Below, piece after piece: positions 17,365-23,177 of a DNA stretch of 46,695 nt; within the stretch, counting starts at the first letter, position 1, and each line of letters starts with the position of its first letter. The notes beneath the pieces are model-generated. The model was not told the DNA's origin and did no database searches. It was given only the letters and a program-made list of their open reading frames with translations. Source of the DNA: an uncultured Bacilli bacterium (GTDB lineage Bacteria; Bacillota_I; Bacilli_A; RFN20; CAG-826); the NCBI GenBank assembly GCA_944351395.1, contig CALVPP010000004.1, positions 1-46,695 on the forward strand, given 5' to 3'. Both the position numbers and the translations under genes were made by a program.

Positions 17365-18122
17365 AATTTAGCCTCAAATAAAGCGACAGCGATATTATCG
17401 CTACCACCATTCGCATTAGCGATACTGATAAATGATTCGCATTTAGCATTCACTGAATCATCAGTCTCTAAAATAGCAACAGTTTCTTCTTTTCGTACTT
17501 GGTTATAAAAACCATCGCTGCACAATAAGATTGTCTCCCCTGCATAAGGAGTTCGTTTAAGTTCTAAACTAGTGGATGGATAAATACCTAAAGCATTAGT
17601 AAGCACATTTTTACGTGGATGATTTTTGCTTTCTTCCTTGCTAATTCTTCCTGATTTTACAAGATAATTCACGTAAGACTGATCGTCTGTTAAAGCGTAG
17701 AGATGACCATTTCTAAATATGTAACATCTAGAATCGCCAATATTTGCGATATAAAGATGATTAGTGTGAATTAAACAAGCGACGATTGTCGTTGCCATAT
17801 CCTTATAATGAGGGTTGGTAGTCGCTTCTTGATAAATTGCTTTATTAATTTTTTCTATCGAGCGAAGAAGAAAAGCCTTCGCTTGAAAAGGTAAGAAAAA
17901 TTTATGATGTGCTAAAAAGGATTCGGTGAGCAGGTCAACAGCTAATTTAGAAGCATAAGCGCCTTGATTGTGTCCGCCTAATCCATCGCATACGACGAGC
18001 AAAATATCGCCGTAAGCATTCGCTACAACTTTAGCTTGATCCTCGTTCGTAAGACGCACTTTGCCTACATCAGTAAGATAAGCAAATGTTCCTTTGTAGA
18101 TTTTTCTTGCTCTTAATTTCAT
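17361..18122 (-). CDS. prpC: PP2C-family protein phosphatase
   Basis: Metal-dependent Ser/Thr phosphatase (PrpC/Stp), the partner that reverses PrkC phosphorylation. It has 253 residues. Metal-binding motifs: TNEDQ near 25-29, CDGLGGH at 45-51, NIGDSRCY and the C-terminal GGSDNIAVAL. It overlaps rlmN and prkC by 4 nt on either side, so the three should be made together. No sign of decay. Confidence 0.95.
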   Translation of the reverse strand: MKLRARKIYKGTFAYLTDVGKVRLTNEDQAKVVANAYGDILLVVCDGLGGHNQGAYASKLAVDLLTESFLAHHKFFLPFQAKAFLLRSIEKINKAIYQEATTNPHYKDMATTIVACLIHTNHLYIANIGDSRCYIFRNGHLYALTDDQSYVNYLVKSGRISKEESKNHPRKNVLTNALGIYPSTSLELKRTPYAGETILLCSDGFYNQVRKEETVAILETDDSVNAKCESFISIANANGGSDNIAVALFEAKL

Positions 18123-19162
18123 TCTTTTACCTTTGCCCGTAATTGACCGCAGGCAGCATCGATATCGCTACCGAACTCTTTTCTTATTGTACACGTAATA
18201 TGTCTTTTATTTAAGTATTCAAAAAATTCTTTTATGGAATTTTCTTCACTACGTTCAAATGGTTTTTCTATTATGGGATTATAAGGGATGAGATTGATAT
18301 AACAATTTAAACCATGTAACAAGTCTGCTAATTGTTTAGCGTCTTTTAAACTATCATTCACATTTTTTATAAGGATATATTCGAAAGTAAGACGTCTGTT
18401 AGTCTTTTGAACGTAAGTATTAATAGCGTCCATAAGAGCGGTGATAGGATAAGCACGATTTATAGGCATGAGCATATTTCTGGTCTCATCATTTGGAGCG
18501 TGTAATGATATAGCTAAATTTACTTGTAAATTTAATGAAGAAAATTTAATTATTTCTGGCACGAGTCCACAAGTCGAGACGGTGATGTGCCTTGCACCAA
18601 TTTGTAAACCAAAAGGTTCATTCATGATATAGATGAAATCGACCACATTTTCGTAATTGTCAAAAGGTTCACCTGTTCCCATGACGACGATATGAGTGAT
18701 ACGATCACCTTTATTTTCTTCTTCTAAAATCTTATTCAAAAGAAGAACTTGTCCGACCATTTCACTCGTAAAAAGATTCCTTCTTTTTTTAAGCATACCA
18801 GACGCACAAAAAGCACAGTTCATATTACAGCCAACTTGGCTAGATATACAAGCCGCCGTCCCGTATCGGTAACGCATGATGACCGATTCTACTTTTTCAC
18901 CGTCTTCAAATTCCGCTAATATTTTTACAGTGCCATCCTTTGCTACTTTTTTTGTGAAAATTGTAGGTAAAGAGATAAAATAGTGCTCTTTAAGTGCATC
19001 GCGCGTCTTCAATGATATATCGCTCATCTTATCGAAGTCGTACACTCTTTTTTCATAAATCCAACGGAAAATTTGTTTTGCTCGATAAGGCTTTTCGCCT
19101 AGTGTTGCGAATAAATCATCTTTTAATTTTTCTAAAGTGAAATTTAAAATGTTTTTCATCAT
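18119..19162 (-). CDS. rlmN: Dual-specificity 23S rRNA/tRNA adenine-C2 methyltransferase
   Basis: Radical-SAM enzyme that methylates C2 of A2503 in 23S rRNA and A37 in some tRNAs. It has 347 residues. The iron-sulphur motif CNMNCAFC gives cysteines at 112, 116 and 119. The second catalytic cysteine region IDAACGQLRAK is present near the C-terminus, as are GTGEP and VSTCG. Overlaps of 4 nt with the rsmB-like gene and with prpC place it in one transcription unit. Confidence 0.96.
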   Translation of the reverse strand: MMKNILNFTLEKLKDDLFATLGEKPYRAKQIFRWIYEKRVYDFDKMSDISLKTRDALKEHYFISLPTIFTKKVAKDGTVKILAEFEDGEKVESVIMRYRYGTAACISSQVGCNMNCAFCASGMLKKRRNLFTSEMVGQVLLLNKILEEENKGDRITHIVVMGTGEPFDNYENVVDFIYIMNEPFGLQIGARHITVSTCGLVPEIIKFSSLNLQVNLAISLHAPNDETRNMLMPINRAYPITALMDAINTYVQKTNRRLTFEYILIKNVNDSLKDAKQLADLLHGLNCYINLIPYNPIIEKPFERSEENSIKEFFEYLNKRHITCTIRKEFGSDIDAACGQLRAKVKE

Positions 19163-20424
19163 TCACTACTCTTCTTCAATTTTGCAAAATAGAAGCATGT
19201 ATCAAATTTATCGTAAGGGAAATATTCTTTTTCTAATTCTAAACTAAATTCTTTATGTTCCTCTAAGAAAGTGGCAATAAGTCCTCTACCTTCTTTTTTA
19301 GAAAGAGTTGATATGTGGTAGATGAGATAGCCATCAGGAGAAACGAATTTAGCTAATTCTTCTAATCCTTCCTTTTGATTGGCGATAAAACTATCTAACA
19401 TCTCTTGCTTAAAATGGATCAAATAATCGGGTTGTGACCTAATGATATCGAAATTAGAATTACGCGGAGCGTAAATGACATATGGATAAGTCTCATGAAG
19501 ATGCGCGATAAGAGCGCTTTTAGAAGATGCAAAAAGATGAATATTATTGAGTTTATTTAGTTTGACTAATCTCAATAATTCCACACGATTTTCAAGCGAA
19601 GGCACCGCTAATTCCATCTTCAAATTCTCTTTATTGTAAAGAGTAGTTAATGAACCGAACACCGTCGAATAATCTTCTGCGTAGATTAAAATATCTAAGA
19701 CGGATGGTAAAGATAGTTGATAAATCATATCGCTCACCGCTAATTTTTGCATGAAGACATCAAAATTACGGAAAAAATCATTTTTCTTAAGCGGAGATTT
19801 ACCGAGGTAGATGACGACATTTTTTAAATCATCAAATGGTGCAAATAGATGAGTATCTAATACTTCTTTCATCGATGAATATTTCGTGTTCACAAAACAT
19901 GATATCTTTTGTGATTTCGTATTCGCCTTTAATATTTTAGTCGCTTTTGCTGGTCCATAATGTTTTTGCCACATTTTGATGAGCCAAAGAGGAGTGTTAA
20001 AACGATACGATTTAAATTCTAAAGAAGTGATAGGAACATCTGCTGGTATCAAAGTGGCTGTATCATTCACGCTAGAAAGAAAGGAAAGGACTTCTTTACT
20101 ATCTAATTCTGGATGTAAATTATTCAAAAGTATGGAGAGGAAGGCTTCTACTTCTCCTTCATCAATTCTTTTAGCAAATAATTTATTTGCTAAAGCGATT
20201 AAAAGAGCAAAATAAAGATCATCTTTTACTAAGTTGGGAAATTTAGAAGTGATGAGCATATCGAAGACGAGATGATGCCTAAGTTCACATCCGACTAAAG
20301 CACTTAAAATTGGTCTTTCCACCTCTTTGTGAGAGGTGAGATATTTTTTTATAGTAGATTGAAAATGACCACCATTTTCGATGATATCTTTTAAAGCGTA
20401 GATGCTTACATTAAATTCATTCAT
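19159..20424 (-). CDS. Degenerate RsmB-like protein (16S rRNA m5C methyltransferase homologue)
   Basis: A 421-residue protein in the rsmB position, directly before rlmN and coupled to it by 4 nt. It has an N-terminal NusB-like region (about 1-125), the RFNTPLWLIKMW segment typical of RsmB at 141-152, then a methyltransferase-like half. The catalytic parts are gone. The SAM loop, normally DLCAAPGGKT, reads DILIYAEDYS (244-253). The DAPCSG motif reads YAPRNS (318-323), losing one cysteine. The YSTCT motif reads YHISTL (369-374), losing the other. The frame is intact and has a good AAGGAT ribosome-binding site, so this looks like a maintained protein without methyltransferase chemistry. An RNA-binding or assembly role is only a guess. 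Confidence 0.8.
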   Translation of the reverse strand: MNEFNVSIYALKDIIENGGHFQSTIKKYLTSHKEVERPILSALVGCELRHHLVFDMLITSKFPNLVKDDLYFALLIALANKLFAKRIDEGEVEAFLSILLNNLHPELDSKEVLSFLSSVNDTATLIPADVPITSLEFKSYRFNTPLWLIKMWQKHYGPAKATKILKANTKSQKISCFVNTKYSSMKEVLDTHLFAPFDDLKNVVIYLGKSPLKKNDFFRNFDVFMQKLAVSDMIYQLSLPSVLDILIYAEDYSTVFGSLTTLYNKENLKMELAVPSLENRVELLRLVKLNKLNNIHLFASSKSALIAHLHETYPYVIYAPRNSNFDIIRSQPDYLIHFKQEMLDSFIANQKEGLEELAKFVSPDGYLIYHISTLSKKEGRGLIATFLEEHKEFSLELEKEYFPYDKFDTCFYFAKLKKSSE

Positions 20425-20470
20425 GCTTTTTCATCCTTACGGGAATTCATTATATGCAAAAGCGATGAAA

Positions 20471-20530: not shown

Positions 20531-22729
20531 TTATCTTATTTGTTTTGGCGCACCATACACATATGGTGTACGGTTCATCTCCGCGTTGAAGGGTGAGGTA
20601 AATGTTCCGTCGTTCATAAATTCGCTAAACGTCGCATAATGATCATCGGTATAGACGACCACTGGGTTATTTTCCCATTCATAAATATTAAAACCGTCTC
20701 GCCAACAGACTAATCTACCAACTCCTCTACTATACTGATAACTATCATCTAAAGCGACATCTAATTCCCAGTAGTGAGTGTGAGTATATTCTTCTTCGTT
20801 ACAATCGCAAGAAACATAAGGAACACTAGTGGCATAACCATCAGTGCGTGTATATTCCTTCGCTCTTCTCGTCTTGTCACCCATCACTTGAGACACTTCG
20901 TTCTTACTATAATTACCATCATCGTCATAATAATTACAAGGGAATGTCCCAAATGCGACAAAATATGCAGCGACATCAGCGATATCGGTATAAGCATAAA
21001 GGTCATCTCTGCCTGATCTTCTCGCTTCTTCAAAAGTATCGAAAACTAGAGTTTTCGTTCTTAAGACATCAAAACTACCATCTGCATTATATCTAACTTC
21101 CACTGGCACTTCGACACTAGATTGTCCTGGAGTGAATGAGCCTTTGGAATATAAAGTTGGTTCTAATCTATTATCGCTAGGCAATTCTTCATATACGTAA
21201 CTTGAAGAATAACCACCGATGTAATTTATGTCTATAGATAAGATATCTATATCACCATCATTTGTCTCGATGGCAAAATATTCGTAACCACCATCACCAA
21301 AAATGATTTCTTGTTCCTTATAATTACTCGGTTCAATCAATTGTTCGTGCTCGTAATTTCTATTATCACCATAGCGTACATAAAAATTAGTGTCGCTACG
21401 ATAAGTGATGTTTATTGAATATAGACGAGAAATAGGATCTACGTTATAAAAAGCTCCTTCTAACAAACTAGGAGAATAATAACCATATTGATCGTTATCT
21501 AAAATGGTGATGAAACCATCGCTACAATAATTAGAGCGATAATATTCAAAATCGTATCCATTATGATATCCACTTGCGAAATTGCCTGTGTCGTACTCTT
21601 CTGCTTCAGTAGGCGCATCATGCATCGATAAAGAAATAGTTTCAAGTTCTGTTACACCGCCTAAATCTCGAACTATAATCTCGATTAGAGCGTTAACATT
21701 TTCATCGGTTGTATCGTAGATTTTTAAGTTTGCCGAACCTTCTTTAAGTGGTAAAACTAATATTCTATCCTCATTAAAATAAGGAGTTACGTATACTGCA
21801 TCACTACTTAAAGAATAACCTAATTCTTTACTCGTATTGCCAGGATAGGCATGAACTTCGACGACTTCACTCGATGAACTATTGAGTTCAAACGAAAGAG
21901 CGGTTTTTGAAACTTCGATGCGTTCTATCGCACTATCCACTTCCGCATATTCCACAATTTGATCTCTTGAATCAATTAAAAATTCGGTGAATTGTTTACC
22001 GCCATTATTTTCATAAGGTTGCATCGGACCCAGGATGTTGAAACGTTTGCCGGCAAAAGAAGATAAATGCTCTTTTACACTACTTGCATCTGTTGAATTG
22101 ATGTAAAGAGTAACGCTATCGCCATTAGGAAAATAGGCCATAATTTCATCATCGCTCATATCCATTGAATTATCGAGACGCATGTTATAAGCGACACCAA
22201 AAAGTGGTCCGCTCGTATAAAGTTCATCGTAAATTCTTTGTTGGGTGTATGAATTGGACACGCCAAAATCTAAAGAACTCACCTCATAAGGAATGATAGG
22301 CGAATCATTTTCATAATAATCTATTTGATGAGATTCTACTTGCATGGTCATAAGACCATAATTTCTCGAGACTACGCCTTCACATGTGATAACGTTGCCA
22401 ACTTCCACATCACTTAACGCACCAGTTAAACAAATAGCGCCTTTATTTTTATATTTATCGGTGCTTTGAATGAATACTCTTCTTTCTCCGCGAGCAGTAA
22501 TCTGTATTTCACTCGCTGTACCCCAAGTTTTGTAAGAGTTAGAAGAGCCATTATAACTCGCGTTAATCATGTATAAAGAGGTGTAAGATGTATCATTAAA
22601 ATAACGTTCACAATCGACAGGACTATTAGGATCAATCGTACGAATAGCAAGACTCATCGCAGGAGCAAAAGAAAGTCCTAATGCTAAAATTGGTAATCCG
22701 ATAGCGAGCAAACTTAATTTATTTTTCAT
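20531..22729 (-). CDS. Large secreted protein with C-terminal barnase-like RNase domain
   Basis: About 732 residues from ATG 22729, which has AGGTG upstream; a GTG 9 nt earlier is also in frame (residue numbers below count from it). A Sec-type signal peptide lies at 4-31 with no lipobox. Residues about 70-140 resemble an OB-fold (ASEIQITARGERRVFIQST ... VEVGNVITCEGVVSRN). Residues about 270-358 look like a bacterial Ig-like domain. Residues about 580-707 line up with barnase: VAAYFVAFGTFPCNY with VADYLQTYHKLPDNY, and the active-site set is present, namely K612, E658 (in YWELD), R671 and R675 (in RGVGR), and H700 (in TDDHYATF). These correspond to barnase K27, E73, R83, R87 and H102. The likely role is an exported guanyl-preferring RNase. 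No barstar is seen nearby. It overlaps the DUF1904-like gene by 11 nt. Confidence 0.8.
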   Translation of the reverse strand: MKNKLSLLAIGLPILALGLSFAPAMSLAIRTIDPNSPVDCERYFNDTSYTSLYMINASYNGSSNSYKTWGTASEIQITARGERRVFIQSTDKYKNKGAICLTGALSDVEVGNVITCEGVVSRNYGLMTMQVESHQIDYYENDSPIIPYEVSSLDFGVSNSYTQQRIYDELYTSGPLFGVAYNMRLDNSMDMSDDEIMAYFPNGDSVTLYINSTDASSVKEHLSSFAGKRFNILGPMQPYENNGGKQFTEFLIDSRDQIVEYAEVDSAIERIEVSKTALSFELNSSSSEVVEVHAYPGNTSKELGYSLSSDAVYVTPYFNEDRILVLPLKEGSANLKIYDTTDENVNALIEIIVRDLGGVTELETISLSMHDAPTEAEEYDTGNFASGYHNGYDFEYYRSNYCSDGFITILDNDQYGYYSPSLLEGAFYNVDPISRLYSINITYRSDTNFYVRYGDNRNYEHEQLIEPSNYKEQEIIFGDGGYEYFAIETNDGDIDILSIDINYIGGYSSSYVYEELPSDNRLEPTLYSKGSFTPGQSSVEVPVEVRYNADGSFDVLRTKTLVFDTFEEARRSGRDDLYAYTDIADVAAYFVAFGTFPCNYYDDDGNYSKNEVSQVMGDKTRRAKEYTRTDGYATSVPYVSCDCNEEEYTHTHYWELDVALDDSYQYSRGVGRLVCWRDGFNIYEWENNPVVVYTDDHYATFSEFMNDGTFTSPFNAEMNRTPYVYGAPKQIR

Positions 22730-23177
22730 AGTCCTCACCTAATATTTCTTTGAAAATATTTCCTTCGTACAATTCATCGTCTTCTTCTTCGCTATCAAGC
22801 ATTTTTTCCTCATCTACTTCAACTTTAACATTATCTTTCATAAAAAGAGGATATTCTTCATTGCGGTATTCGTAGACGTGATGCTCTTCATAATAATGGA
22901 ATTCAATACGAATATTGACCATCACTTCTTTTACTTCATGAATTAATACTTTCGCTACTTTTTCTTCGAAAGGATGAAATCTTTCTGGTAAAGAAACACG
23001 GATGAGACCGTGCCAAGAAGTTTGTTCTACTCCGTCGTGGTAAATTTGTGCATTAGGTGCATAAAAATCAATATCATCTGGGCTTGTCTCTAAAATATTC
23101 GCTAATGGTTTAGTTAACGATTTTGATAAATTTCCAACCAAATATTGGTCTAGTCCAATAAATTCAAATAAAATCAT
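22719..23177 (-). CDS. DUF1904-like protein with acidic C-terminal tail
   Basis: A 152-residue protein. Residues 1 to about 100 resemble the DUF1904 family, a MIF/tautomerase-like fold of unknown role common in Erysipelotrichia and Acholeplasma relatives (SLTKPLANILETSPDDIDFY, then GLIRVSLPERFHPFEEKVAKVL). No proline follows the start methionine, so tautomerase chemistry is unlikely. The last 50 residues are an unusual acidic tail (EVDEEKMLDSEEEDDELYEG). The start at 23177 is chosen over an ATG 6 nt upstream because AGAGAGGA is then properly spaced. It is translationally coupled to the secreted RNase-like gene. Family call moderately sure; function unknown. Confidence 0.65.
   Translation of the reverse strand: MILFEFIGLDQYLVGNLSKSLTKPLANILETSPDDIDFYAPNAQIYHDGVEQTSWHGLIRVSLPERFHPFEEKVAKVLIHEVKEVMVNIRIEFHYYEEHHVYEYRNEEYPLFMKDNVKVEVDEEKMLDSEEEDDELYEGNIFKEILGEDYEK

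What the first reader, a model, noticed from the sequence alone, without database searches (positions are those of the whole stretch)
19159..20424. RsmB homologue that has lost both catalytic cysteines and the SAM loop but kept its frame
The gene is in the conserved rsmB place and keeps the NusB-like domain and the NTPLWL segment. However, DAPCSG reads YAPRNS, the YSTCT motif reads YHISTL, and the AAPGGKT loop is unrecognisable. Intact frame, good ribosome-binding site and coupling to rlmN argue against a recent pseudogene. It may act as an rRNA-binding assembly factor.
Basis: partly seen in the sequence, partly recalled or inferred. Interest (0 to 1): 0.65.

Follow-up and report, generated by a model that had tools for sequence, protein, structure and literature searches.

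The report
Catalytically dead RsmB kept clade-wide
A bacterial enzyme that normally adds a methyl group to the ribosome's RNA has lost every part needed for that chemistry, yet a large group of uncultured bacteria has kept the rest of the protein under strong selection, which suggests it works as a ribosome-assembly helper without doing any methylation.

Summary
The gene is on the minus strand (19159-20424, 421 aa) and overlaps rlmN by 4 nt. It is an RsmB orthologue by fold (AlphaFold pLDDT 95; best PDB hits E. coli RsmB/Fmu, TM 0.81, 17% identity) with motifs I, IV and VI destroyed. This is not local decay. The catalytic motif-VI Cys and the SAM-loop Asp and Lys are absent in all 103 pseudo-RsmBs examined, from three families of the same order, and present in 29/29 intact RsmBs of sister families and the class. 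With motif columns removed, the pseudo-RsmBs of these families form one clade (support 100). dN/dS is 0.05-0.13 and rlmN coupling is conserved. A second, apparently independent loss occurs in another family of the class. The window genome keeps one intact m5C enzyme, RsmF-like, and no intact RsmB. 16S position 967, the RsmB target, is A in a congener and two other species of the family; it is C in all 45 class members sampled outside the order. Best explanation: a non-catalytic h31-binding 30S assembly factor, in line with the SAM-independent effect of E. coli RsmB/RsmD on nascent 16S folding (PMC13004024). RNA binding and function are inferred, not shown. I found no prior report of a pseudo-RsmB.

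The parts
19159..20424 (-). pseudo-RsmB coding sequence, 421 aa, ATG start
20434..20438 (-). ribosome-binding site AAGGA, 9 nt upstream of the ATG
   Evidence: read from the sequence
20071..20424 (-). NusB-like helical N-terminal domain (residues 1-118)
   Evidence: AlphaFold2 model and full-length match to E. coli RsmB
19981..19998 (-). conserved NTPLWL segment (residues 143-148) at the start of the ferredoxin-like subdomain
   Evidence: (PF22458)
19648..19698 (-). remnant of motif I / SAM loop (residues 243-259); Asp and Lys of D-x-C-A-A-P-G-x-K absent
19432..19473 (-). remnant of motif IV: YAPRNSNFDIIRSQ (residues 318-331) in place of DAPCSGxGVIRRK
19291..19320 (-). remnant of motif VI: YHISTLSKKE (residues 369-378); catalytic Cys lost, flanking Tyr, Thr and Glu kept
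18119..19162 (-). rlmN, overlapping the pseudo-rsmB stop by 4 nt; the pairing is conserved in the family

Best explanation
The gene is the true orthologue of rsmB, turned into a pseudoenzyme in the common ancestor of three families of this order and kept since under purifying selection. I think it most likely still binds the h31 region of nascent or immature 16S rRNA with the RsmB fold, shielding the loop and preventing misfolding during early 3'-domain assembly, and then leaves without methylating anything. Shown here: orthology, predicted fold, loss of catalytic and SAM residues, clade-wide sharing, purifying selection, conserved coupling to rlmN, no intact RsmB in the genome, and substitution of the target base in some lineages. 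Inferred: RNA binding, the h31 site, and the assembly role.
For: Full-length RsmB fold, TM 0.81 to 1sqf/1sqg against 0.50-0.58 to RsmF. Motif-VI Cys and motif-I Asp/Lys are in 29/29 intact and 0/103 pseudo sequences; motif-IV Cys in 29/29 and 8/103. One clade with support 100 on a tree without the motif columns. dN/dS 0.05-0.13 among close pairs. rlmN adjacent in about 74 loci. Residues Gly365, Tyr369, Thr373, Glu378, Pro332-Asp333 and the NTPxWL segment stay conserved. The target base is A in three genomes that carry the protein, C in all 45 class genomes outside the order. A second lineage lost the same residues and, in two of its three members, the ferredoxin-like segment too, yet keeps NusB and C-terminal parts. 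E. coli RsmB/RsmD reduce a misfolded h30/h31 class without SAM (PMC13004024); rsmB deletion accumulates 17S rRNA (PMC7056703); dead RlmB and RlmL still stimulate assembly (PMC11194073).
Against: No RNA-binding or assembly data exist for this protein. Divergence is large (about 30% identity within the family, stem branch 1.0), so function may have drifted. Net charge of the NusB domain falls from +5 in intact RsmB to -1.4 in the family and -5 here, although the ferredoxin-like part rises from 0 to +4 (+8 here). In the E. coli experiment RsmB and RsmD were added together, so the effect cannot be assigned to RsmB alone, and RsmD seems missing from the window genome. Twelve of 116 family genomes lack the gene at the search threshold, so it is not universal.
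Confidence: 0.6

Rival explanations
1. Neofunctionalised scaffold: the dead RsmB no longer acts at h31 but is a partner or activator of another protein, for example the adjacent RlmN or the RsmF-type enzyme, in the manner of pseudoenzyme activators or NSUN4-MTERF4.
For: Tight and conserved overlap with rlmN; fast divergence after the loss; changed domain charges; NSUN4 acts in mitoribosome assembly with MTERF4 (PMC3916286).
Against: rlmN and rsmB are neighbours also where RsmB is intact (L098), so adjacency is no evidence of a new partnership; the features kept are the RsmB scaffold and residues around the old active site.
Confidence: 0.2
2. New chemistry: the remodelled site (P-x-S-S-x-F-D-x-I-R, Y-x-V-x-T-x-x-K-E) is an active site of another reaction or a ligand pocket.
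For: Invariant or near-invariant Tyr369, Thr373, Glu378 and a clade-specific motif IV consensus.
Against: Those residues are also conserved in intact RsmB, so they are inherited; positions that held the SAM and catalytic residues are variable (the motif-VI Cys position is P, N, D, T, S, Y, F and others), unlike an active site.
Confidence: 0.08
3. Slow decay: a pseudogene that happens to remain open.
For: Higher dN/dS than rlmN in most pairs; absence from 12 of 116 family genomes.
Against: Nearly every family homologue is open and full length, over three families; dN/dS is about ten times below neutrality; the RsmB fold is predicted at pLDDT 95.
Confidence: 0.02
4. Residual enzyme: it still binds SAM and methylates some RNA with displaced residues, or another enzyme (RsmF-type or the 310-aa m5C enzyme of some genera) supplies the reaction on its platform.
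For: Eight of 103 sequences keep the motif-IV Cys; intact RsmF-like enzyme in the genome.
Against: The motif-VI nucleophile and both motif-I residues are gone in all 103; target base is A in a congener.
Confidence: 0.07

Closest known systems
RsmB (Fmu, SunL), 16S rRNA m5C967 methyltransferase
   Same: Orthologous gene place next to rlmN, three-domain fold over full length (TM 0.81), NTPxWL segment, conserved Tyr, Thr and Glu around motif VI.
   Different: Catalytic Cys, motif-IV Cys (all but 8 of 103), motif-IV Asp and the whole SAM loop lost in the clade; the target base itself is changed in some species.
RsmF/YebU-type m5C methyltransferases
   Same: Same MTase superfamily; an intact copy is in the genome (G000 contig C6).
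   Different: No NusB domain in RsmF; poorer structural match (TM 0.50-0.58).
rRNA modification enzymes with methylation-independent assembly roles (RlmB, RlmL domain of RlmKL, RlmE, NSUN4)
   Same: Assembly function separable from catalysis in published work.
   Different: Those are active enzymes tested with mutants; here evolution has removed catalysis over a whole clade.

Membership tests
RsmB, as a protein family | NusB-like + ferredoxin-like + Rossmann MTase architecture | tested here: met
   AlphaFold2 model, Foldseek to 1sqf/1sqg TM 0.81 over the full chain
RsmB, as a protein family | Phylogenetic placement with RsmB rather than RsmF | tested here: met
   Clade lies with intact RsmB of the same order (support 83, short branch), RsmF outgroup apart
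RsmB, as a protein family | Gene place next to rlmN | tested here: met
RsmB, as an active enzyme | Motif VI nucleophile Cys and motif IV Cys | tested here: not met
RsmB, as an active enzyme | Motif I SAM-binding loop | tested here: not met
RsmB, as an active enzyme | NCBIfam equivalog cut-off for RsmB | tested here: not met
   75.7 bits against 319; intact L130 of the same order scores 439.9
RsmB, as an active enzyme | Target C967 in 16S rRNA | tested here: inconclusive
   A in congener G002; the window genome's own assembly has no 16S gene
RsmB, as an active enzyme | m5C967 formed in vivo | not testable with these tools
   needs bisulphite or mass-spectrometric mapping
30S assembly factor acting at h31 | Binding to pre-30S particles or h31 RNA | not testable with these tools
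   inferred from homology and PMC13004024

The most novel reading that the evidence does not exclude
A methyltransferase-derived dedicated 30S assembly chaperone: RsmB with its catalysis removed at least twice in evolution, showing that the selected function of the RsmB scaffold in these lineages is h31 chaperoning and not the m5C967 mark, which has itself been given up along with the target base in some species.
Probability: 0.5. Interest if true: 0.75.

Novelty: new variant of a known kind. Interest (0 to 1): 0.62.

Why it matters
Whether rRNA modification enzymes are kept for the mark or for an assembly role is a long-standing question, mostly tested with point mutants with small phenotypes. 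A whole clade that kept RsmB under selection while losing all of its catalytic and SAM-binding residues, with some members also changing the target base, is a natural separation of the two functions, and gives a ready set of catalytically silent RsmBs to test. It also warns that annotating this gene as 16S m5C967 methyltransferase would be wrong in these families.

Tried and rejected
Simple decay in one genome: rejected by congeners, family, order and dN/dS. Assembly or sequencing error: rejected, independent MAGs share the losses. A second intact RsmB elsewhere in the genome: not found, only the RsmF-like protein. 16S of the window genome itself and of congeners G001 and G003: not found in the assemblies. 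16S base 967 in the second pseudo-RsmB lineage (G315, G523, G363): no match. Single origin of all losses: the tree places the second lineage inside intact relatives, but the AU test is only borderline (delta lnL 51.8, p 0.0502). Literature search for RsmB with pseudoenzyme: no paper in the held library; other wordings gave none either among the papers listed, with the limit that only open-licence papers are held.

Full report
What is there. The open frame at 19159-20424 lies on the minus strand, codes for 421 aa from an ATG with AAGGA 9 nt upstream, and its stop overlaps the start of rlmN (18119-19162) by 4 nt. Downstream follow a PP2C phosphatase, a Ser/Thr kinase and rpe; upstream, beyond a 735-aa protein without a Pfam match and a DUF1904-like protein, is priA. 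Pfam sees only the RsmF/B ferredoxin-like domain and a sub-threshold Methyltr_RsmB-F match; the NCBIfam RsmB model PRK14902 covers 6-397 at E 3e-21 but with 75.7 bits against a cut-off of 319.

Fold. AlphaFold2 with 62 family sequences gives pLDDT 95.1 and pTM 0.90. The best solved structures are E. coli RsmB (1sqf, 1sqg), TM 0.81 over the whole chain at 16-17% identity; RsmF structures give TM 0.50-0.58. So all three domains of RsmB, NusB-like part included, are kept.

What is lost, and how widely. In 29 intact RsmBs (sister families of the order plus sampled families of the class) the motif-VI Cys, motif-IV Cys, motif-IV Asp and motif-I Asp and Lys are present in 29/29. In 103 pseudo-RsmBs (83 of the window's family f1, 8 of f3, 12 of f5) the motif-VI Cys, motif-I Asp and motif-I Lys are in 0/103, and the motif-IV Cys in 8/103, all in f1. 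The flanking Tyr369, Thr373, Glu378, Gly365 and Pro332-Asp333 stay conserved. In the family sample 104 of 116 genomes and 33 of 35 genera have a homologue at E<=1e-3, nearly all as one open frame; the weakest of these hits are the RsmF-type enzyme rather than pseudo-RsmB. In the order, canonical RsmB above the curated cut-off was found only in families f2, f6, f7 and f8; the f3 and f5 sequences examined, like f1, are of the pseudo form; in f4 no RsmB was found.

History. On a tree built without the motif columns, all f1+f3+f5 sequences form one clade (SH-aLRT 100) with a long stem (1.0 changes per column), beside the intact RsmBs of the same order. This points to one loss in the ancestor of three families. 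A second set, L274, L275 and L280 from two genera of family f23 of the class, has lost the same residues (APSSN/APSSG for DAPCSG, TNT for TCT); two of the three also lack most of the ferredoxin-like segment and motif I. They sit among intact f23/f12 RsmBs (clade 99). An AU test against a single clade of all pseudo forms is borderline (p 0.0502, delta lnL 51.8), so independence is likely but not proven by that test alone; the tree is a quick one and long branches are present.

Selection and context. For pairs of close relatives (dS below about 1.5) dN/dS of pseudo-rsmB is 0.05-0.13, except for the window against a congener (0.24 at dS 1.4); rlmN in the same pairs is mostly 0.01-0.09. rlmN follows directly, usually overlapping, in about 74 loci. 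The window genome (99.5% complete) has a single intact m5C enzyme, an RsmF-like protein of 411 aa on contig C6.

The target. 16S position 967 (E. coli numbering, in h31) is C in all 45 genomes of the class outside the order in which the pattern was found, always followed by A968. In 32 genomes of f1 and f3 it is A in three: G002 (the window's genus; TTCGACG-A-TCCACG), G030 and G180; and 968 is T in 20 of 32. Two of these 32 (G038, G076) belong to a genus in which no pseudo-RsmB was found. The window's own 16S is not in its assembly. So in at least one congener the RsmB target base is gone while the protein stays. The pattern fixes the flanks, so strongly diverged 16S sequences are missed.

Mechanism. 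Shown: an RsmB orthologue without the residues for SAM binding or catalysis, kept by selection. Inferred: it still binds the h31 region and helps the 3' domain fold. The closest support is published: E. coli RsmB/RsmD added to nascent 16S 3' domain reduce a misfolded h30 class with or without SAM, as does replacing the h31 loop (PMC13004024); E. coli lacking rsmB accumulates 17S rRNA (PMC7056703); dead RlmB and RlmL still promote 50S assembly (PMC11194073); NSUN4 has an assembly role apart from methylation (PMC3916286). Against it stand the charge shift of the NusB domain, the apparent lack of RsmD in the window genome (present in 52 of 57 family genomes above cut-off) and the absence of any direct data. 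A scaffold for another protein is the main rival.

Novelty. I found no paper joining RsmB with pseudoenzyme in the held library, and none among those listed in related searches. It is a new pseudoenzyme branch of a known family, not a new kind of system. Naming of the organism: only group codes and MAG titles (uncultured Bacilli) were available.

Noticed in passing
L274, L275, L280 (genomes G315, G523, G363; family f23 of the class): A second, apparently independent pseudo-RsmB lineage, in two of the three members with most of the ferredoxin-like segment and motif I deleted but NusB and C-terminal parts kept.
   Followed up: partly
G000 whole genome: RsmD (m2G966) gives no real match in the window genome although 52 of 57 family genomes have it above cut-off; in congener G002 the match is just below cut-off and is reported with one in-frame stop. 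h31 modification may be wholly lost in this genus.
   Followed up: no
L138, L139, L141, L143-L145: About 300-310-aa m5C methyltransferase-like proteins with intact motifs but no NusB domain in genus g6 of f1 (which lacks pseudo-RsmB) and in genus g54 of f3 (which also has pseudo-RsmB); target unknown.
   Followed up: no
window 20531-22738 (-): 735-aa protein with a secretion-like N-terminus and no Pfam match sits between priA and rsmB, where def and fmt stand in many Bacillota (the latter from general knowledge).
   Followed up: no
16S rRNA of families f1 and f3: Base 968 is T in 20 of 32 genomes, but A in every sampled class member outside the order; the h31 loop seems to drift in the clade without a catalytic RsmB.
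   Followed up: partly
G180:C1:49356-50624: The pseudo-rsmB match is reported with one TAA inside; this genome is also one of the three with A967. Not resolved whether the gene is broken there.
   Followed up: no
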